DNA of 64,000 nt from contig OZ037767.1 of NCBI GenBank assembly GCA_964035545.1, forward strand, positions 1-64,000, in the 5' to 3' direction. Made by a program: the position numbers and the translations under genes. The notes beneath the pieces were generated by a model that was given only the letters and a program-made list of their open reading frames with translations, was not told the DNA's origin and searched no databases. This document shows, in pieces, positions 1-27,180 of the stretch (the stretch's first letter is position 1; every line of letters begins with the position of its first letter). The stretch is from Bugula neritina (taxonomy: Eukaryota; Bryozoa; Gymnolaemata; Cheilostomatida; Bugulidae).

Positions 1-3000
1 CCCCAAACCCCAAACCCCAAACCCCAAACCCCAACCCCAAACCCCAAACCCCAACCCCAAACCCCAAACCCCAAACCCCAAACCCCAAACCCCAAACCCC
101 AACCCCCAAACCCCAAACCCCAAACCCCAAACCCCAAACCCCACCCAAACCCCAAACCCCAAACCCCAAACCCCAAACCCCAAACCCAAACCCCAACCCC
201 AAACCCCAAACCCCAAACCCCAAACCCCAAACCCCAAACCCCAAACCCCAAACCCCAAACCCCAAACCCCAAACCCCAAACCCCAAACCCCAAACCCCAA
301 ACCCCAAACCCCAAACCCCAAACCCCAAACCCCAAACCCCAAACCCCAAACCCCAAACCCCAAACCCCAAACCCCAAACCCCAAACCCCAAACCCCAAAC
401 CCCAAACCCCAAACCCAAACCCCAAACCCCAAACCCCAAACCCCAAACCCCAAACCCCAAACCCCAAACCCCAAACCCCAAACCCCAAACCCCAAACCCC
501 AAACCCCAAACCCCAAACCCCAAACCCCAAACCCCAAACCCCAAACCCCAAACCCCAAACCCCAAACCCCAAACCCCAAACCCCAAACCCCAAACCCCAA
601 ACCCCAAACCCCAAACCCCAAACCCCAAACCCCAAACCCCAAACCCCAAACCCCAAACCCCAAACCCCAAACCCCAAACCCCAAACCCCAAACCCCAAAC
701 CCCAAACCCCAAACCCCAAACCCCAAACCCCAAACCCCAAACCCCAAACCCCAAACCCCAAACCCCAAACCCCAAACCCCAAACCCCAAACCCCAAACCC
801 CAAACCCCAAACCCCAAACCCCAAACCCCAAACCCCAAACCCCAAACCCCAAACCCCAAACCCCAAACCCAAACCCCAAACCCCAAACCCCAAACCCCAA
901 ACCCCAAACCCCAAACCCCAAACCCCAAACCCCAAACCCCAAACCCCAAACCCCAAACCCCAAACCCCAAACCCCAAACCCCAAACCCCAAACCCCAAAC
1001 CCCAAACCCCAAACCCCAAACCCCAAACCCCAAACCCCAAACCCCAAACCCCAAACCCCAAACCCCAAACCCCAAACCCCAAACCCCAAACCCCAAACCC
1101 CAAACCCCAAACCCCAAACCCCAAACCCCAAACCCCAAACCCCAAACCCCAAACCCCAAACCCCAAACCCCAAACCCCAACCCCAAACCCCAAACCCCAA
1201 ACCCCAAACCCCAAACCCCAAACCCCAAACCCCAAACCCCAAACCCCAAACCCCAAACCCCAAACCCCAAACCCCAAACCCCAAACCCCAAACCCCAAAC
1301 CCCAAACCCCAAACCCCAAACCCCAAACCCCAAACCCCAAACCCCAAACCCCAAACCCCAAACCCCAAACCCCAAACCCCAAACCCCAAACCCCAAACCC
1401 CAAACCCCAAACCCCAAACCCCAAACCCCAAACCCCAAACCCCAAACCCCAAACCCCAAACCCCAAACCCCAAACCCCAAACCCCAAACCCCAAACCCCA
1501 AACCCCAAACCCCAAACCCAAACCCCAAACCCCAAACCCCAAACCCCAAACCCCAAACCCCAAACCCCAAACCCCAAACCCCAAACCCCAAACCCCAAAC
1601 CCCAAACCCCAAACCCCAAACCCCAAACCCCAAACCCCAAACCCCAAACCCCAAACCCCAAACCCCAAACCCCAAACCCCAAACCCCAAACCCCAAACCC
1701 CAAACCCCAAACCCCAAACCCCAAACCCCAAACCCCAAACCCCAAACCCCAAACCCCAAACCCCAAACCCCAAACCCCAAACCCCAAACCCCAAACCCCA
1801 AACCCCAAACCCCAAACCCCAAACCCCAAACCCCAAACCCCAAACCCCAAACCCCAAACCCCAAACCCCAAACCCCAAACCCCAAACCCCAAACCCCAAA
1901 CCCCAAACCCCAAACCCCAAACCCCAAACCCCAAACCCCAAACCCCAAACCCCAAACCCCAAACCCCAAACCCCAAACCCCAAACCCCAAACCCCAAACC
2001 CCAAACCCCAAACCCCAAACCCCAAACCCCAAACCCCAAACCCCAAACCCCAAACCCCAAACCCCAAACCCCAAACCCCAAACCCCAAACCCCAAACCCC
2101 AAACCCCAAACCCCAAACCCCAAACCCCAAACCCCAAACCCCAAACCCCAAACCCCAAACCCCAAACCCCAAACCCCAAACCCCAAACCCCAAACCCCAA
2201 ACCCCAAACCCCAAACCCCAAACCCCAAACCCCAAACCCCAAACCCCAAACCCCAAACCCCAAACCCCAAACCCCAAACCCCAAACCCCAAACCCCAAAC
2301 CCCAAACCCCAAACCCCAAACCCCAAACCCCAAACCCCAAACCCCAAACCCCAAACCCCAAACCCCAAACCCCAAACCCCAAACCCCAAACCCCAAACCC
2401 CAAACCCCAAACCCCAAACCCCAAACCCCAAACCCCAAACCCCAAACCCCAAACCCCAAACCCCAAACCCCAAACCCCAAACCCCAAACCCCAAACCCCA
2501 AACCCCAAACCCCAAACCCCAAACCCCAAACCCCAAACCCCAAACCCCAAACCCCAAACCCCAAACCCCAAACCCCAAACCCCAAACCCCAAACCCCAAA
2601 CCCCAAACCCCAAACCCCAAACCCCAAACCCCAAACCCCAAACCCCAAACCCCAAACCCCAAACCCCAAACCCCAAACCCCAAACCCCAAACCCCAAACC
2701 CCAAACCCCAAACCCCAAACCCCAAACCCCAAACCCCAAACCCCAAACCCCAAACCCCAAACCCCAAACCCCAAACCCCAAACCCCAAACCCCAAACCCC
2801 AAACCCCAAACCCCAAACCCCAAACCCCAAACCCCAAACCCCAAACCCCAAACCCCAAACCCCAAACCCCAAACCCCAAACCCCAAACCCCAAACCCCAA
2901 ACCCCAAACCCCAAACCCCAAACCCCAAACCCAAACCCCAAACCCCAAACCCCAAACCCCAAACCCCAAACCCCAAACCCCAAACCCCAAACCCCAAACC

Positions 3001-6000
3001 CCAAACCCCAAACCCCAAACCCCAAACCCCAAACCCCAAACCCCAAACCCCAAACCCCAAACCCCAAACCCCAAACCCCAAACCCCAAACCCCAAACCCC
3101 AAACCCCAAACCCCAAACCCCAAACCCCAAACCCCAAACCCCAAACCCCAAACCCCAAACCCCAAACCCCAAACCCCAAACCCCAAACCCCAAACCCCAA
3201 ACCCCAAACCCCAAACCCCAAACCCCAAACCCCAAACCCCAAACCCCAAACCCCAAACCCCAAACCCCAAACCCCAAACCCCAAACCCCAAACCCCAAAC
3301 CCCAAACCCCAAACCCCAAACCCCAAACCCCAAACCCCAAACCCCAAACCCCAAACCCCAAACCCCAAACCCCAAACCCCAAACCCCAAACCCCAAACCC
3401 CAAACCCCAAACCCCAAACCCCAAACCCCAAACCCCAAACCCCAAACCCCAAACCCCAAACCCCAAACCCCAAACCCCAAACCCCAAACCCCAAACCCCA
3501 AACCCCAAACCCCAAACCCCAAACCCCAAACCCCAAACCCCAAACCCCAAACCCCAAACCCCAAACCCCAAACCCCAAACCCCAAACCCCAAACCCCAAA
3601 CCCCAAACCCCAAACCCCAAACCCCAAACCCCAAACCCCAAACCCCAAACCCCAAACCCCAAACCCCAAACCCCAAACCCCAAACCCCAAACCCCAAACC
3701 CCAAACCCCAAACCCCAAACCCCAAACCCCAAACCCCAAACCCCAAACCCCAAACCCCAAACCCCAAACCCCAAACCCCAAACCCCAAACCCCAAACCCC
3801 AAACCCCAAACCCCAAACCCCAAACCCCAAACCCCAAACCCCAAACCCCAAACCCCAAACCCCAAACCCCAAACCCCAAACCCCAAACCCCAAACCCCAA
3901 ACCCCAAACCCCAAACCCCAAACCCCAAACCCCAAACCCCAAACCCCAAACCCCAAACCCCAAACCCCAAACCCCAAACCCCAAACCCCAAACCCCAAAC
4001 CCCAAACCCCAAACCCCAAACCCCAAACCCCAAACCCCAAACCCCAAACCCCAAACCCCAAACCCCAAACCCCAAACCCCAAACCCCAAACCCCAAACCC
4101 CAAACCCCAAACCCCAAACCCCAAACCCCAAACCCCAAACCCCAAACCCCAAACCCCAAACCCCAAACCCCAAACCCCAAACCCCAAACCCCAAACCCCA
4201 AACCCCAAACCCCAAACCCCAAACCCCAAACCCCAAACCCCAAACCCCAAACCCCAAACCCCAAACCCCAAACCCCAAACCCCAAACCCCAAACCCCAAA
4301 CCCCAAACCCCAAACCCCAAACCCCAAACCCCAAACCCCAAACCCCAAACCCCAAACCCCAAACCCCAAACCCCAAACCCCAAACCCCAAACCCCAAACC
4401 CCAAACCCCAAACCCCAAACCCCAAACCCCAAACCCCAAACCCCAAACCCCAAACCCCAAACCCCAAACCCCAAACCCCAAACCCCAAACCCCAAACCCC
4501 AAACCCCAAACCCCAAACCCCAAACCCCAAACCCCAAACCCCAAACCCCAAACCCCAAACCCCAAACCCCAAACCCCAAACCCCAAACCCCAAACCCCAA
4601 ACCCCAAACCCCAAACCCCAAACCCCAAACCCCAAACCCCAAACCCCAAACCCCAAACCCCAAACCCCAAACCCCAAACCCCAAACCCCAAACCCCAAAC
4701 CCCAAACCCCAAACCCCAAACCCCAAACCCCAAACCCCAAACCCCAAACCCCAAACCCCAAACCCCAAACCCCAAACCCCAAACCCCAAACCCCAAACCC
4801 CAAACCCCAAACCCCAAACCCCAAACCCCAAACCCCAAACCCCAAACCCCAAACCCCAAACCCCAAACCCCAAACCCCAAACCCCAAACCCCAAACCCCA
4901 AACCCCAAACCCCAAACCCCAAACCCCAAACCCCAAACCCCAAACCCCAAACCCCAAACCCCAAACCCCAAACCCCAAACCCCAAACCCCAAACCCCAAA
5001 CCCCAAACCCCAAACCCCAAACCCCAAACCCCAAACCCCAAACCCCAAACCCCAAACCCCAAACCCCAAACCCCAAACCCCAAACCCCAAACCCCAAACC
5101 CCAAACCCCAAACCCCAAACCCCAAACCCCAAACCCCAAACCCCAAACCCCAAACCCCAAACCCCAAACCCCAAACCCCAAACCCCAAACCCCAAACCCC
5201 AAACCCCAAACCCCAAACCCCAAACCCCAAACCCCAAACCCCAAACCCCAAACCCCAAACCCCAAACCCCAAACCCCAAACCCCAAACCCCAAACCCCAA
5301 ACCCCAAACCCCAAACCCCAAACCCCAAACCCCAAACCCCAAACCCCAAACCCCAAACCCCAAACCCCAAACCCCAAACCCCAAACCCCAAACCCCAAAC
5401 CCCAAACCCCAAACCCCAAACCCCAAACCCCAAACCCCAAACCCCAAACCCCAAACCCCAAACCCCAAACCCCAAACCCCAAACCCCAAACCCCAAACCC
5501 CAAACCCCAAACCCCAAACCCCAAACCCCAAACCCCAAACCCCAAACCCCAAACCCCAAACCCCAAACCCCAAACCCCAAACCCCAAACCCCAAACCCCA
5601 AACCCCAAACCCCAAACCCCAAACCCCAAACCCCAAACCCCAAACCCCAAACCCCAAACCCCAAACCCCAAACCCCAAACCCCAAACCCCAAACCCCAAA
5701 CCCCAAACCCCAAACCCCAAACCCCAAACCCCAAACCCCAAACCCCAAACCCCAAACCCCAAACCCCAAACCCCAAACCCCAAACCCCAAACCCCAAACC
5801 CCAAACCCCAAACCCCAAACCCCAAACCCCAAACCCCAAACCCCAAACCCCAAACCCCAAACCCCAAACCCCAAACCCCAAACCCCAAACCCCAAACCCC
5901 AAACCCCAAACCCCAAACCCCAAACCCCAAACCCCAAACCCCAAACCCCAAACCCCAAACCCCAAACCCCAAACCCCAAACCCCAAACCCCAAACCCCAA

Positions 6001-8206
6001 ACCCCAAACCCCAAACCCCAAACCCCAAACCCCAAACCCCAAACCCCAAACCCCAAACCCCAAACCCCAAACCCCAAACCCCAAACCCCAAACCCCAAAC
6101 CCCAAACCCCAAACCCCAAACCCCAAACCCCAAACCCCAAACCCCAAACCCCAAACCCCAAACCCCAAACCCCAAACCCCAAACCCCAAACCCCAAACCC
6201 CAAACCCCAAACCCCAAACCCCAAACCCCAAACCCCAAACCCCAAACCCCAAACCCCAAACCCCAAACCCCAAACCCCAAACCCCAAACCCCAAACCCCA
6301 AACCCCAAACCCCAAACCCCAAACCCCAAACCCCAAACCCCAAACCCCAAACCCCAAACCCCAAACCCCAAACCCCAAACCCCAAACCCCAAACCCCAAA
6401 CCCCAAACCCCAAACCCCAAACCCCAAACCCCAAACCCCAAACCCCAAACCCCAAACCCCAAACCCCAAACCCCAAACCCCAAACCCCAAACCCCAAACC
6501 CCAAACCCCAAACCCCAAACCCCAAACCCCAAACCCCAAACCCCAAACCCCAAACCCCAAACCCCAAACCCCAAACCCCAAACCCCAAACCCCAAACCCC
6601 AAACCCCAAACCCCAAACCCCAAACCCCAAACCCCAAACCCCAAACCCCAAACCCCAAACCCCAAACCCCAAACCCCAAACCCCAAACCCCAAACCCCAA
6701 ACCCCAAACCCCAAACCCCAAACCCCAAACCCCAAACCCCAAACCCCAAACCCCAAACCCCAAACCCCAAACCCCAAACCCCAAACCCCAAACCCCAAAC
6801 CCCAAACCCCAAACCCCAAACCCCAAACCCCAAACCCCAAACCCCAAACCCCAAACCCCAAACCCCAAACCCCAAACCCCAAACCCCAAACCCCAAACCC
6901 CAAACCCCAAACCCCAAACCCCAAACCCCAAACCCCAAACCCCAAACCCCAAACCCCAAACCCCAAACCCCAAACCCCAAACCCCAAACCCCAAACCCCA
7001 AACCCCAAACCCCAAACCCCAAACCCCAAACCCCAAACCCCAAACCCCAAACCCCAAACCCCAAACCCCAAACCCCAAACCCCAAACCCCAAACCCCAAA
7101 CCCCAAACCCCAAACCCCAAACCCCAAACCCCAAACCCCAAACCCCAAACCCCAAACCCCAAACCCCAAACCCCAAACCCCAAACCCCAAACCCCAAACC
7201 CCAAACCCCAAACCCCAAACCCCAAACCCCAAACCCCAAACCCCAAACCCCAAACCCCAAACCCCAAACCCCAAACCCCAAACCCCAAACCCCAAACCCC
7301 AAACCCCAAACCCCAAACCCCAAACCCCAAACCCCAAACCCCAAACCCCAAACCCCAAACCCCAAACCCCAAACCCCAAACCCCAAACCCCAAACCCCAA
7401 ACCCCAAACCCCAAACCCCAAACCCCAAACCCCAAACCCCAAACCCCAAACCCCAAACCCCAAACCCCAAACCCCAAACCCCAAACCCCAAACCCCAAAC
7501 CCCAAACCCCAAACCCCAAACCCCAAACCCCAAACCCCAAACCCCAAACCCCAAACCCCAAACCCCAAACCCCAAACCCCAAACCCCAAACCCCAAACCC
7601 CAAACCCCAAACCCCAAACCCCAAACCCCAAACCCCAAACCCCAAACCCCAAACCCCAAACCCCAAACCCCAAACCCCAAACCCCAAACCCCAAACCCCA
7701 AACCCCAAACCCCAAACCCCAAACCCCAAACCCCAAACCCCAAACCCCAAACCCCAAACCCCAAACCCCAAACCCCAAACCCCAAACCCCAAACCCCAAA
7801 CCCCAAACCCCAAACCCCAAACCCCAAACCCCAAACCCCAAACCCCAAACCCCAAACCCCAAACCCCAAACCCCAAACCCCAAACCCCAAACCCCAAACC
7901 CCAAACCCCAAACCCCAAACCCCAAACCCCAAACCCCAAACCCCAAACCCCAAACCCCAAACCCCAAACCCCAAACCCCAAACCCCAAACCCCAAACCCC
8001 AAACCCCAAACCCCAAACCCCAAACCCCAAACCCCAAACCCCAAACCCCAAACCCCAAACCCCAAACCCCAAACCCCAAACCCCAAACCCCAAACCCCAA
8101 ACCCCAAACCCCAAACCCCAAACCCCAAACCCCAAACCCCAAACCCCAAACCCCAAACCCCAAACCCCAAACCCCAAACCCCAAACCCCAAACCCCAAAC
8201 CCCAAA
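1..8206. repeat. Telomeric array, 7-mer CCCCAAA (G-strand TTTGGGG)
   Basis: The sequence is an essentially uninterrupted run of CCCCAAA, about 1,170 units. The C-rich strand starts at the left edge, so the complementary G-rich strand runs 5' to 3' toward that edge, as at a true chromosome end. Units one base short or long (CCCAAA, CCCCAA, CCCCCAA) occur in the first 230 bases and sparsely near 414, 868, 1179, 1517 and 2931. From about 2,940 to 8,206 I see no irregular unit. Known telomere repeats include TTAGGG in most animals, TTGGGG in Tetrahymena and TTTTGGGG in hypotrich ciliates; this one differs from all of them. A non-telomeric satellite is possible but the terminal position and orientation argue against it. 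Confidence 0.9.
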
Positions 8207-8437
8207 CCCCGGACCCCAAACCCCGGACCCCGGACCCCGGACCCCGGACCCCGGACCCCGGACCCCGGACCCCGGACCCCGAACCCCGAACCCCGGACCC
8301 CGGACCCCGGACCCCGGACCCCGGACCCCGGACCCCGGACCCCGGACCCCGGACCCCAGACCCCAGACCCCGGACCCCGGACCCCGGACCCCGGACCCCG
8401 GACCCCAGACCCCAGACCCCAGACCCCAGACCCCAAA
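8207..8437. repeat. Proximal telomere-variant repeats
   Basis: The 7-base period continues without a phase break, but the last three bases vary: mostly CCCCGGA, two CCCCGAA, and blocks of CCCCAGA, with one CCCCAAA at 8214 and one at 8431. On the G strand these read TCCGGGG, TTCGGGG and TCTGGGG. All changes fall in the AAA part; the CCCC core is kept. This resembles the degenerate proximal zone of human telomeres and marks the telomere/subtelomere boundary at about 8437. Confidence 0.88.
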
Positions 8438-11391
8438 CGCCAAGTCTCACAATTTTAGAACCTCACAAACCACTATTTTTCATGATCATACAATTAGCAA
8501 GGCGACCAAACTTACTCAACTATCATTTGCCCATGACATTGGAACTTAAAGATTAAGTTAGTGGAACTATACTCTAATGTTGGCCTCTTTTGGCTAGTTT
8601 TCTGACTTTTTGCTATACACTGAGCTCATTCAGCAACTTTATGCTTATATATGGACAGTGTGCCAAACTCGTGATCAGATACATAATGCTGCATTCGTTT
8701 GGTCTGTAGTTTATTTAGCATACTTCATTGAAGTTAGCATACCAACCACATAACCTTCCATTGGTGGTTTTATACACAACTTTACATCTCTATCATTTCT
8801 TACAGTCACTCTTCAGCATGTTAGAGTTATCCTCATTTTAAATTGAATGAAACTTGTAATATTTAAAAGTATATTGGCCTCATGATTTATATAATTTTTC
8901 ATGCTTTTTATGGCTATGGTTTTCAAACCTAATGCTTCACCTATTCTCTCCCGTTTCTTATCAATGAATCATCTTAATATTATACACCTAATCTATAGCT
9001 CGCACCCTCTTCAGTCTGTTGTCATTTTCAATACTTGTTCAACCAATGGACAGCCGCTATTCACAGCTCATGGATTATAAGTCCGTGCACGGCTAGTCAT
9101 GCGTCACGATACATGACGTAACAAGCACGTGTTCAATCGTGGTCCTAACTGGATTGCCATTCATCATTCATTCGTCTGAACCGACATTGATGTCTTCTGC
9201 AAGTTCTGTCTAGGGAATCCTTAACGCTGTCGCGGTAATTTGTTTGTATTAACTGCTAGTTCAATTAAATTTCAAGCCGCGGCTCCTTGGATTTAATTTT
9301 AATCGTTTTCATTTTATGTTAAACTTCATCATTAAGATTATGTTAGTAATAGTAACACTAAGGCTAATGACTTGGGTAATGCCATTCGACTATAGAGTAA
9401 TAGTAGCTCACTTGACTATTGTTAGTAGTTTTAGTAGCTTATTAGTATTACCATTACTAACACAAATACTTGCACTTGACAGTTGTAGTGAGAGTAATAT
9501 TAATAGTTATAGTATTAGTTGTCATTTTTGTTTTTATTATCAGAATAAATATCAATATGATATTGATAACCACAGGTAACAAAAGTCGATGATGATTATC
9601 ATTATAATGTCAACTATTAGTATTATTATAATAATTACAATCATAACTGCAATGCCTATTAATGATTATGATAATAATTTAAATTTAAATTATTATATTG
9701 ATTATTATTCTCGTTTTTATTCTCTTCCGGGCTCCCGTTTTATTTTATTTTCCCACAACTCAAACCTCTGGCTCTACTGGTAACTTATAAGCATGACTAT
9801 GACCATTAGTGATTTAGTCATAATTGTAATGAAATGTTATTTCAAGTTGGGTGTCTTTATTTGTAATTCTTTCGTCTAGTTTTAGTACTTGTTCTAGTCT
9901 CTTGGAAATTGGGTTTTATGCATATTGATATTCATTATTATAATCACTACTATTCTACTTTGTTACCATCAGTATATGACTACGAAAATTTATATTCATT
10001 CAAATTGATGTTATGAATAGAGTAAAAATTTCACTCCATTAGTTGTGTTTGTTTTTATACTAATGACAAATAGGTAATAGTAATATAAAAATATAATCTG
10101 TTTTGTATTTTCATACTCGAGTTTATGTAATATTAGAATGGTAATTTGTTCCTATTTTTCATTCATTTAAGTTAGTCAGTGTGAACTCATTTTCAGTTCA
10201 AAATAAATTAATTTTAGTTTTGACAATTTTTTCCCTCATTCCCTATTAAGTATTTTCATACTGTTTAAACACCATGATCATGCTCAGATTTGGCCAAAGT
10301 TGATTTTTTTAAATCACTACTCAATATTTCGAGGCAATCACTTTCACCATTACGACCTGCTTCTTGTAATCTACTGTATTTGGATGAATAGCGTTTACAA
10401 AGTCAATAATGATCCTAATTATAACACTTCATCTGCTGTATTCAGATTAGTAACACATGCAGGCAGTAAAATGCTTTTATGACTGCTGTTTTCACTTCAC
10501 TCTGCTTCACTTTTGCCATTTCTATTTGTTCACGTTTTCTCAGATTTGTGTAAAAGCTGTTGTTTGTTTCTTCTCAGTATTTTTATGTTAGTTCTCTCCA
10601 GTTTTTCAGTTCAAACCCCAAACCCCATTTTACATATTATCTAATATTGTAAAACATACCAAATTTTCCATCTGTTTAAATTTCTGGTTCACATTTTGAA
10701 TATTCTAGTCATTTGTAGAGGAAACTTGCAGTCTTTTCTAAATATCATCTACATACCTGTATAGTTACATATCTATTCTATTGTGTGTTTTTAATAATCA
10801 ATAATGTTATAATTTTATTATCGGCTAACTCTGCTAATGGGAATTTGTGCAGCTTGCTGCTTGCTCCTAATGTAGTTGTCTTCTCTTGTTTTCTCGAAGT
10901 TCCATTACGAAGTTGTCTTCTTTTGTTTTCCTGAACTCTCCTAATGTAGTTGTCTTCTCTCAGTTTCTTTAAATATGGTATTCAAAGGCTCACACTTGCA
11001 AATTGTCTGCTCTGTCAGTAAGAATAGTTTGATCAGTTTATTGTGACTCCGCAGCCTCCAGACTAGGGAAGTATTTTGTTCTCACTTGGTAACTATGTTT
11101 AGCTTGCTGGTCACAATCAGGTATATTTGCTAGCTTTATTATTTATTAGGTTATGGCTCTTTCAACAAATCATATTTCAACTTAATTAAGCATGATGACA
11201 CTCTTCTACTTATTTAAGTAATGATTAATCTTCAAGATTAAATGTGATAGTTTTGTATTTTTCCATTTCTCATTTTTTTGCTTTTTCTACTGCTGTTGTA
11301 ATAAATGAGCTGTATTTAGAATTTTATGTTTATTTCATTGTTTTTCATCATATGCAACACCACATTTTTATAAACTACTTTATTCTTACAG
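8438..11391. other. AT-rich subtelomeric DNA, no convincing gene
   Basis: The stretch is AT-rich, with short chance reading frames only. Between 9,340 and 9,800 it has a marked AGTAAT/ATTAGT-like three-base texture. A motif ending GTTGTCTTCTCT recurs at about 10,876, 10,910 and 10,947 and again in the repeat units further in. From about 11,130 the sequence is homologous to 21,430-22,260. Confidence 0.6.
10612..10627. repeat. Short interstitial telomere-like motif
   Basis: Two units of the terminal 7-mer (AAACCCCAAACCCC) stand alone about 2.2 kb inside the telomere boundary, in the same orientation as the telomere. It is short enough to be chance in principle, but the surrounding DNA is poor in C runs. 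Confidence 0.6.
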
Positions 11392-11508
11392 TAACTGGTG
11401 TGATGGTCACATGGTCAGCTACTAGACAACCAACCAATTGGGTATAAAGGTGGACAAAGTCATTCTAGATTATTCTTGGCATGTGTCAGCTGTAAGAGCT
11501 ATATGGAG
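11392..11508 (+). pseudogene. Conserved exon-like segment f, copy 1
   Basis: A 117-base segment lies between a 3' splice-like ttcttacag and a 5' splice-like gtaata. Its second copy is at 21671-21787, also 117 bases with the same flanking signals. In both, one frame (after two leading bases) reads a short peptide beginning T-G/A-V-M-V-T-W-S and containing R-Q-P-T-N-W-V, followed by a stop at the same place. The rest of the segment after the stop is also well conserved. It may be a terminal coding exon, an untranslated exon, or a relic of one. The family is not recognised. Confidence 0.35.
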
Positions 11509-12001
11509 GTAATACTTATGAAGTATAACATGTCTTCTTGATGAAGCTATTTATCTAAAGAATTGTTCACAAATTTTCATTTAATCACAATTCAACAAGT
11601 AAACAGTTTCAAACTTTTCATCAAGTTGTATTTTCAAGAATTACCAATTATAGTTGAACTCAAGTTAAACTGATATAGTATTTTACTTCTCTGTAAGTTG
11701 TTTCACAAGACTCATTACGTTACTAGATTTCCTACTTATATCATACATCTGTATTATATGCATGAGTAGAGAAGTTTGATGTTGGTTTAATCATTTATCC
11801 AGTTAGAAACTTTAGATATAACATATACTCCTATACAGTATTAACATAGTGTTGAGTGTTTTCTGAATGCTTGGAATCTACTTATTAATTTGTCAGTTTG
11901 GAGGAAAAAATTTTACAGGTTATGTTTCTGTTGCCATAAATCAAGCTTCTTTTTTTCTATTGTATTTTGAACAAGTTTATTTACTACTTTTTGTGTTACA
12001 G

Positions 12002-26520: not shown

Positions 26521-26934
26521 GTTCACTACCATGCAGTTACGTAGCAGTTCCCTGTTAACAGAGTACGCAATAACTACTACAGAGTATACAGTACTAGCTA
26601 CATATACTACAGTTTTGAGTCACAAAAGGGACTCATCTAACAATGTGTCACCTTTAGTAGATATCTTGTGCATTACCTGTAGGATAGTTCAATCCATAAA
26701 GCTTGAACATTCATCTGTAACAGCTTTCATACTCTCAGCCCTGAAATAACATGAAAGTAAAATATAAAACATGGTAGCTGATTGGGTTCAAAAAAATTAC
26801 AAATGTGAAAAAAATCGATATAAAATATTTATAAACGCCACGAGTAACCCTAAATACTTCAACATGGAGAATGTTTGAGTTTGTCAACTAATATTTACTT
26901 AGTGAGTAGTAATGGGTAATAGTTACCATTTACT

Positions 26935-27052
26935 GCAGGCGAGAGGTCCGTGGCAGGCGAGAGGTCCGTGGCAGGCGAGAGGTCCGTGGCAGGCGAGAGG
27001 TCTGTGGCAGGCGAGAGGTCTGTGGCAGGCGAGAGGTCTGTGGCAGGCGAGA
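26935..27052. repeat. 18-bp tandem array, about 7 copies
   Basis: The unit is GGCAGGCGAGAGGTCYGT, unusually GC-rich for the area. Because 18 is divisible by three, all frames through it are open on both strands; these reading frames are by-products. Confidence 0.95.
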
Positions 27053-27099
27053 GATCTGAGGCAGAGGTATAATGAAAGAAGATCAGCTGCTGTTGCTGG

Positions 27100-27180
27100 A
27101 TGAACACTCAAGTGTCTGAGAAGCTTCACCATGACTGCACCTGACTTCAAACAAGCACAATAAGATCTACAGCTATTATA
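27100..27180 (-). pseudogene. Weak zinc-finger-like segment
   Basis: The minus-strand reading Y-C-A-C-L-K-S-G-A-V-M-V-K-L-L-R-H-L-S-V-H has Cys and His spacing like C2H2 (x12 between the second Cys and first His, x3 between His), but one residue too few between the cysteines. It is reported because it is collinear with the two segments above. Confidence 0.2.

What the first reader, a model, noticed from the sequence alone, without database searches (positions are those of the whole stretch)
1..8206. Chromosome end with a TTTGGGG telomere repeat in an apparently animal genome
Seen: an 8.2 kb terminal run of one 7-mer, strand orientation correct for a telomere. Known: most animals use TTAGGG, arthropods TTAGG, nematodes TTAGGC; TTGGGG and TTTTGGGG belong to ciliates. 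A TTTGGGG repeat beside CNBD2-like, BROX and pentraxin genes would imply a changed telomerase RNA template and altered end-binding proteins.
Basis: partly seen in the sequence, partly recalled or inferred. Interest (0 to 1): 0.9.

Follow-up and report, generated by a model that had tools for sequence, protein, structure and literature searches.

The report
TTTGGGG telomeres in a bryozoan
The chromosome ends of a marine moss animal (Bugula neritina) are capped by a seven-letter repeat, TTTGGGG, in place of the TTAGGG of most animals, which points to a changed template in its telomere-building enzyme.

Summary
Window 1-8206 is a nearly pure (CCCCAAA)n array, continued by variant units to 8443, at base 1 of chromosome 3 of the Bugula neritina assembly tzBugNeri2.1 (all nine chromosome lengths agree with the published note, three of them to the base). 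Of 18 chromosome ends, 13 carry TTTGGGG, always pointing outward; the C9 end carries only AAATTTT, next to a subtelomere about 98% like this window's; four show no array in the stretches read. (TTAGGG)4 has no match in 215.8 Mb. A ciliate is present in the assembly (small contigs with TTGGGG ends and a TERT gene using TAA/TAG as glutamine), but the TTTGGGG array here runs without a gap into animal DNA and lacks the outer TTGGGG cap of Tetrahymena germline telomeres. Best reading: a genuine, telomerase-made animal telomere with a changed RNA template. The mechanism is inferred: neither host TERT nor telomerase RNA was found, the searches were insensitive, and the Rfam search never ran. TTTGGGG is in print for Tetrahymena germline telomeres and a dinoflagellate; my searches showed no animal. 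New variant of a known kind.

The parts
1..8206 (-). Telomere array, (TTTGGGG)n on the minus strand running towards base 1, the chromosome end
   Evidence: first sequence of contig C3
8207..8443 (-). Inner edge of the array made of variant units (TCCGGGG, TCTGGGG, TTCGGGG on the minus strand)
   Evidence: the start of C4 has its own variant block, 59 CCCCGAA units
8475..11931 (.). Subtelomere shared, mirrored, with the last 3.4 kb before the terminal array of C9
   Evidence: 97.8% over 2,640 and 98.5% over 802 aligned bases

Best explanation
TTTGGGG is the telomere repeat of the bryozoan Bugula neritina, and window 1-8443 is the telomere of the left end of chromosome 3. It is most likely made, as in other animals, by telomerase copying a template in its RNA subunit, here a permutation of CCCCAAA repeated about 1.2 to 1.5 times; against the TTAGGG template this is one substitution and one added C per repeat. 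Shown: terminal position, orientation, recurrence at most chromosome ends, absence of (TTAGGG)4, gap-free continuity with animal DNA. Inferred: synthesis by telomerase, the template change, and that a short template (8 nt in the apple snail) makes such a change easier because few template positions are duplicated.
For: 13 of 18 chromosome ends carry the repeat and none has it in the wrong orientation. 6,370 of 6,687 forward (CCCCAAA)4 matches lie in the first 10 kb of C2-C7. (TTAGGG)4: 0 matches. No N in the window, and animal-type genes and a LINE on the same contig. The flanking subtelomere recurs at the end of C9. Several arrays are perfect over kilobases, as expected of continual renewal.
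Against: No host TERT: PF12009, PF21399 and a marsupial TERT gave only the ciliate gene above cut-off or at a low E-value. TRF gave no match and POT1 only E 0.017, below cut-off. The template pattern gave 111 matches against 151 for the reversed control, so no sign of a template. Four ends show no array and one shows only AAATTTT. Of the 6,539 reverse matches only part were placed.
Confidence: 0.9

Rival explanations
1. The arrays belong to a ciliate living with the colony, for example its germline telomeres, which in Tetrahymena contain TTTGGGG, and were joined to bryozoan scaffolds by mistake.
For: A ciliate is in the assembly: 7 of 11 sampled small contigs begin with CCCCAA repeats, and C287 has a TERT gene open over 745 codons with 31 TAA/TAG codons, related to Tetrahymena. 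Tetrahymena germline telomeres are GGGGTTT inside a GGGGTT cap (PMC13368176, passages).
Against: The window is gap-free from the array to animal genes. The flank recurs at another bryozoan chromosome end. The arrays have no outer TTGGGG cap; CCCCAA units are 0 to 18 per kb. (CCCCAA)5 has one match on C1-C9 among 7,820 (list in contig order). Thirteen misjoins, all in the right orientation, are not plausible.
Confidence: 0.02
2. The ends carry TTTGGGG but are not maintained by telomerase; recombination between ends (an ALT-like process) spreads the repeat, the enzyme being lost.
For: No host TERT found in four searches. Subtelomeric sequence is shared between C3 and C9 ends.
Against: Kilobases of perfect 7-mers in several arrays fit renewal by telomerase. 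The searches read exon by exon, the first look scored few candidates, and no lophotrochozoan TERT was available as query, so absence is not shown. Dyskerin, a partner of H/ACA-type telomerase RNA, was found on C7, but it has other duties.
Confidence: 0.04
3. The array is an ordinary satellite that happens to lie at scaffold ends, and the true telomere is another sequence farther out.
For: Five of 18 ends show no TTTGGGG in the stretches read, and AAATTTT lies outside TTTGGGG at both C2 ends.
Against: Orientation is outward at all 13 ends. The AAATTTT at C2 arises from TTTGGGG by a graded change, which looks like a sequencing artefact. In the 100 matches listed (all on C1) the only internal site is 35 bases long.
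Confidence: 0.03

Closest known systems
Animal TTAGGG telomere
   Same: Short G-rich repeat, G strand running to the chromosome end, kilobases long
   Different: The repeat here is TTTGGGG; (TTAGGG)4 is absent
Tetrahymena germline (micronuclear) telomere, G4T3 plus G4T2 (PMC13368176, passages)
   Same: The same 7-mer, GGGGTTT, in a homogeneous inner stretch
   Different: There it is capped by GGGGTT and belongs to a ciliate; here no cap was seen and the host is an animal
Amoebophrya A120 telomeres, TTTAGGG/TTTGGGG (PMC7789003, passages)
   Same: TTTGGGG units at scaffold ends
   Different: A dinoflagellate; given there together with TTTAGGG, at three scaffolds
Bdelloid rotifer TGTGGG repeat (PMC7943196, passages)
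   Same: A spiralian animal whose telomere repeat departs from TTAGGG
   Different: Six bases, other sequence
Changed repeats in Hymenoptera (PMC11814493, section 6)
   Same: Telomere repeats changed within an animal group, found in genome assemblies
   Different: Insects; compound or longer units such as AACCCAGACCC

Membership tests
Telomerase-type telomere repeat | Repeat at chromosome ends, G strand 5' to 3' towards the end | tested here: met
   13 of 18 ends, none reversed
Telomerase-type telomere repeat | Same repeat on non-homologous chromosomes, homogeneous units | tested here: met
   Present on C1-C8; arrays with perfect kilobases
Telomerase-type telomere repeat | TERT encoded by the host | tested here: inconclusive
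   Only the ciliate TERT was found; search insensitive to split exons
Telomerase-type telomere repeat | Telomerase RNA with a matching template | tested here: inconclusive
   111 pattern matches against 151 in the reversed control; RF00024 did not complete
Telomerase-type telomere repeat | Sensitive to Bal31, terminal by FISH | not testable with these tools
   needs the bench
Canonical animal TTAGGG telomere | TTAGGG arrays at the ends | tested here: not met
   (TTAGGG)4 has 0 matches
Tetrahymena-type germline telomere | Inner GGGGTTT followed by an outer GGGGTT cap | tested here: not met
   No outer cap in six arrays read kilobase by kilobase
Ciliate macronuclear mini-chromosome telomere | Short TTGGGG ends on small contigs with TAA/TAG read as glutamine | tested here: not met
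   Not met by the window; met by sampled small contigs such as C14, C15, C18 and C20

The most novel reading that the evidence does not exclude
Bugula's telomere machinery has been remade as a whole: the RNA template moved to the repeat known from Tetrahymena germline telomeres, and host TERT and TRF have diverged beyond profile search, or part of the enzyme came from ciliate associates like the one in this sample. My failure to find host TERT or TRF does not exclude this; nothing here supports it directly.
Probability: 0.04. Interest if true: 0.95.

Novelty: new variant of a known kind. Interest (0 to 1): 0.6.

Why it matters
Telomere repeats tend to stay fixed across large groups because the RNA template and the end-binding proteins must change together (general knowledge). 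A bryozoan with a four-G repeat gives a natural case in which to ask how that joint change happens; the animal telomerase RNA survey whose passages I saw mentions no bryozoan. It also gives curators of bryozoan assemblies a motif to search for, and a warning that this assembly holds ciliate contigs with a similar repeat. By inference, TTTGGGG could form four-tetrad G-quadruplexes, where TTAGGG forms three.

Tried and rejected
Species guesses Clavelina lepadiformis and Ascidia mentula (nine chromosomes each) were rejected because their chromosome lengths differ. Four weak PF12009 matches on C4, C1, C2 and C1 (E 0.45 to 5.9) and two weak PF21399 matches on C8 and C3 (E 0.028 and 4.9) showed no TERT-like frames when I read their translations, and were dropped. 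PF00115 (mitochondrial marker) did not complete and was dropped once the lengths identified the assembly. The template pattern could not tell a telomerase RNA from chance. Protein searches: one search gave 14 hits and one search gave 9, those with names all protists; one search gave 305, and the 120 listed appear to be mammals; so no invertebrate TERT was available as a query. Rfam at gathering thresholds found nothing in the window. That AAATTTT is a second real telomere repeat was considered; the graded change at C2 makes an artefact likelier, but no reads were examined.

Full report
What is there. The first 8,206 bases of the window are (CCCCAAA)n, followed to 8443 by variant units; 1,163 of 1,209 units are canonical, 13 of the 46 deviants start at or before 2930 and 33 lie in 8207-8443. 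On the other strand this is (TTTGGGG)n running to the chromosome end. The window is bases 1-64000 of contig C3 in an assembly of 215,847,546 bases and 295 contigs and holds no N.

Which organism. The nine large contigs have lengths 35,640,107; 33,575,671; 32,418,041; 24,795,343; 17,720,077; 16,049,455; 15,813,509; 13,348,985 and 10,879,868. The genome note of Bugula neritina tzBugNeri2.1 (PMC11480708; passages, section 5) gives longest scaffold 35,640,107, N50 24,795,343 and N90 10,879,868, which are C1, C4 and C9 to the base, and a table in which all nine agree at two decimals. B. neritina is a cheilostome bryozoan.

Distribution. I read the first 10 kb of C1-C9 (12 kb for C1, C8, C9) and the last 1.5 kb (4 kb for C2, 5 kb for C9). 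CCCCAAA arrays stand at the start of C2 (behind about 0.7 kb of AT-rich sequence), C3, C4, C5, C6 and C7; TTTGGGG arrays stand at the end of C1, C2, C3, C5, C6, C7 and C8. None is reversed. That is 13 of 18 ends. The starts of C1, C8 and C9 and the end of C4 show no array in the stretches read; the end of C9 has only AAATTTT. The six starts hold 6,370 of the 6,687 forward (CCCCAAA)4 matches. The 6,539 reverse matches were only partly placed, since one search lists 100 places, all on C1: two belong to a 35-base internal run at 2.77 Mb and 98 to the array at the end. (TTAGGG)4 has no match.

The subtelomere. Window 8475-11105 and 11131-11931 are 97.8% and 98.5% identical, mirrored, to sequence next to the terminal array of C9. 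So the flank belongs to bryozoan chromosomes and recurs at another end. Weaker similarities link window 8630-8720 to the start of C6 and 26746-27180 to the end of C4. Of 69 frames of at least 80 aa listed I scanned 10 with Pfam: a LINE (RVT_1, endonuclease), a PHD finger, a Pentaxin and a PAN domain pass their cut-offs; BRO1 and cyclic-nucleotide-binding matches do not.

The ciliate. The 286 small contigs total 15.6 Mb (lengths). Of 11 sampled (C10-C20), 7 begin with CCCCAA repeats; C16 does not, but has a 2,393-aa frame under the ciliate code against 108 under the standard code; C12, C13 and C17 look bacterial. (CCCCAA)5 has 7,820 matches; the list, in contig order and cut at 100, shows one on C1-C9 (C6:7578) before the small contigs. 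C287 carries a telomerase gene open over 745 codons, 31 of them TAA or TAG, nearest among named proteins to Tetrahymena (40%) and Pseudocohnilembus (38%). The first 180 bases of C287 show no CCCCAA repeat. So a ciliate is in the sample. Because Tetrahymena germline telomeres carry GGGGTTT inside a GGGGTT cap (PMC13368176, passages), I asked whether the arrays could be such telomeres. The six start arrays have no such cap: CCCCAA units number 0 to 18 per kb. The window's array is also joined without a gap to animal DNA. I reject that reading.

How it works. By established knowledge, a homogeneous terminal repeat shared by non-homologous ends is the product of telomerase, and its RNA template would be a CCCCAAA permutation. 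In the protostomes of PMC8480181 (passages: molluscs, annelids, a brachiopod, a phoronid; bryozoa occurs nowhere in that text) the RNA has a box H/ACA domain, and the apple snail template is 8 nt. With so short a template few positions are duplicated, so a change of repeat needs few simultaneous mutations; this is inference. I could not find the host enzyme. PF12009 (E up to 10), PF21399 and a marsupial TERT gave one convincing match in all, the ciliate gene. TRF gave none, and the tool notes that this does not show absence; POT1 gave one weak match, E 0.017. Dyskerin, as a positive control of the method, was found on C7 at E 7.7e-28, but it is far better conserved than TERT. A template pattern gave 111 matches against 151 for the reversed control. 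RF00024 was asked seven times and never answered.

Odd outermost sequence. (AAAATTT)4 has 52 matches in the genome: 12 at the C2 start, 32 at the C2 end and 8 at the C9 end, all in telomere orientation. At both C2 ends TTTGGGG grades outward into AAATTTT over about 0.5 to 2 kb; in the graded zone the substitutions are mainly T to A and G to T, with some G to A. Where the change is complete my alignment re-registers, so its counts there do not show the mapping. At C9 AAATTTT begins close to the junction. The C3 end drifts towards poly-G. A graded, base-by-base change is not what a template switch would give; drift of the base caller on long DNA with two kinds of base per strand is likelier. No reads were examined.

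Literature. The searches were: TTTGGGG with telomer (19 papers, 19 listed); bryozoa with telomer (45, 40 listed); bugula with telomer (17, 17 listed); CCCCAAA, AAACCCC, GGGGTTT, telomer, T3G4, any two (96, 40 listed); tidk, telomeric repeats, Cheilostomatida, any two (95, 15 listed); spiralian telomere terms, any two (696, 20 listed). In what was listed I saw no report of this repeat in an animal. The library holds open-licence papers only. TTTGGGG is reported for Amoebophrya (PMC7789003, passages). TeloBase (PMC10767889, passages) does not have the string TTTGGGG in its main text. The tidk paper (PMC11814493, section 6) covers 500 species, found repeats in 421, and has 45 unusual ones; its main text names no bryozoan. 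From recall only, the tidk clade table includes Cheilostomatida with a motif I do not remember, so the repeat may already stand in that data file.

Verdict. A real chromosome end with a TTTGGGG telomere in an animal: a new variant of a known kind. The enzyme behind it remains to be found.

Noticed in passing
G000 small contigs, for example L018, L022, L024, L038: The deposited B. neritina assembly contains contigs of an oligohymenophorean-like ciliate: TTGGGG ends, long frames only with TAA/TAG as glutamine, and its own TERT on C287.
   Followed up: partly
L010:1-700, L030:500-1500, L037, L043:3440-3500: AAATTTT arrays occur in the whole genome only at both ends of C2 and the end of C9 (52 of 52 matches of (AAAATTT)4), grading out of TTTGGGG at C2; probably a base-calling artefact of long two-base DNA.
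   Followed up: partly
L031:750-1450: The end of C3 drifts from TTTGGGG towards poly-G (T to G and T loss), a second kind of end decay.
   Followed up: no
L020, L021, L025 (C12, C13, C17): Three of 11 sampled small contigs look bacterial: GC 43-50% and, in C12 and C17, frames of over 1,000 aa under the standard code.
   Followed up: no
window 37045-63709: Dense run of different minisatellites with units of 12 to 60 bases; one at 48.2-49.9 kb is about 70% like the minisatellite that fills the start of C1.
   Followed up: no
L018, L019, L022, L023 (C10, C11, C14, C15): The ciliate contigs listed also carry internal TTGGGG blocks, all listed ones on the minus strand, as if alternative chromosome ends were assembled in line.
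   Followed up: no
window 26746-27180: Similar (79-84%) to the last 1.5 kb of C4, whose end lacks a telomere array, so that end may be close to its telomere.
   Followed up: no
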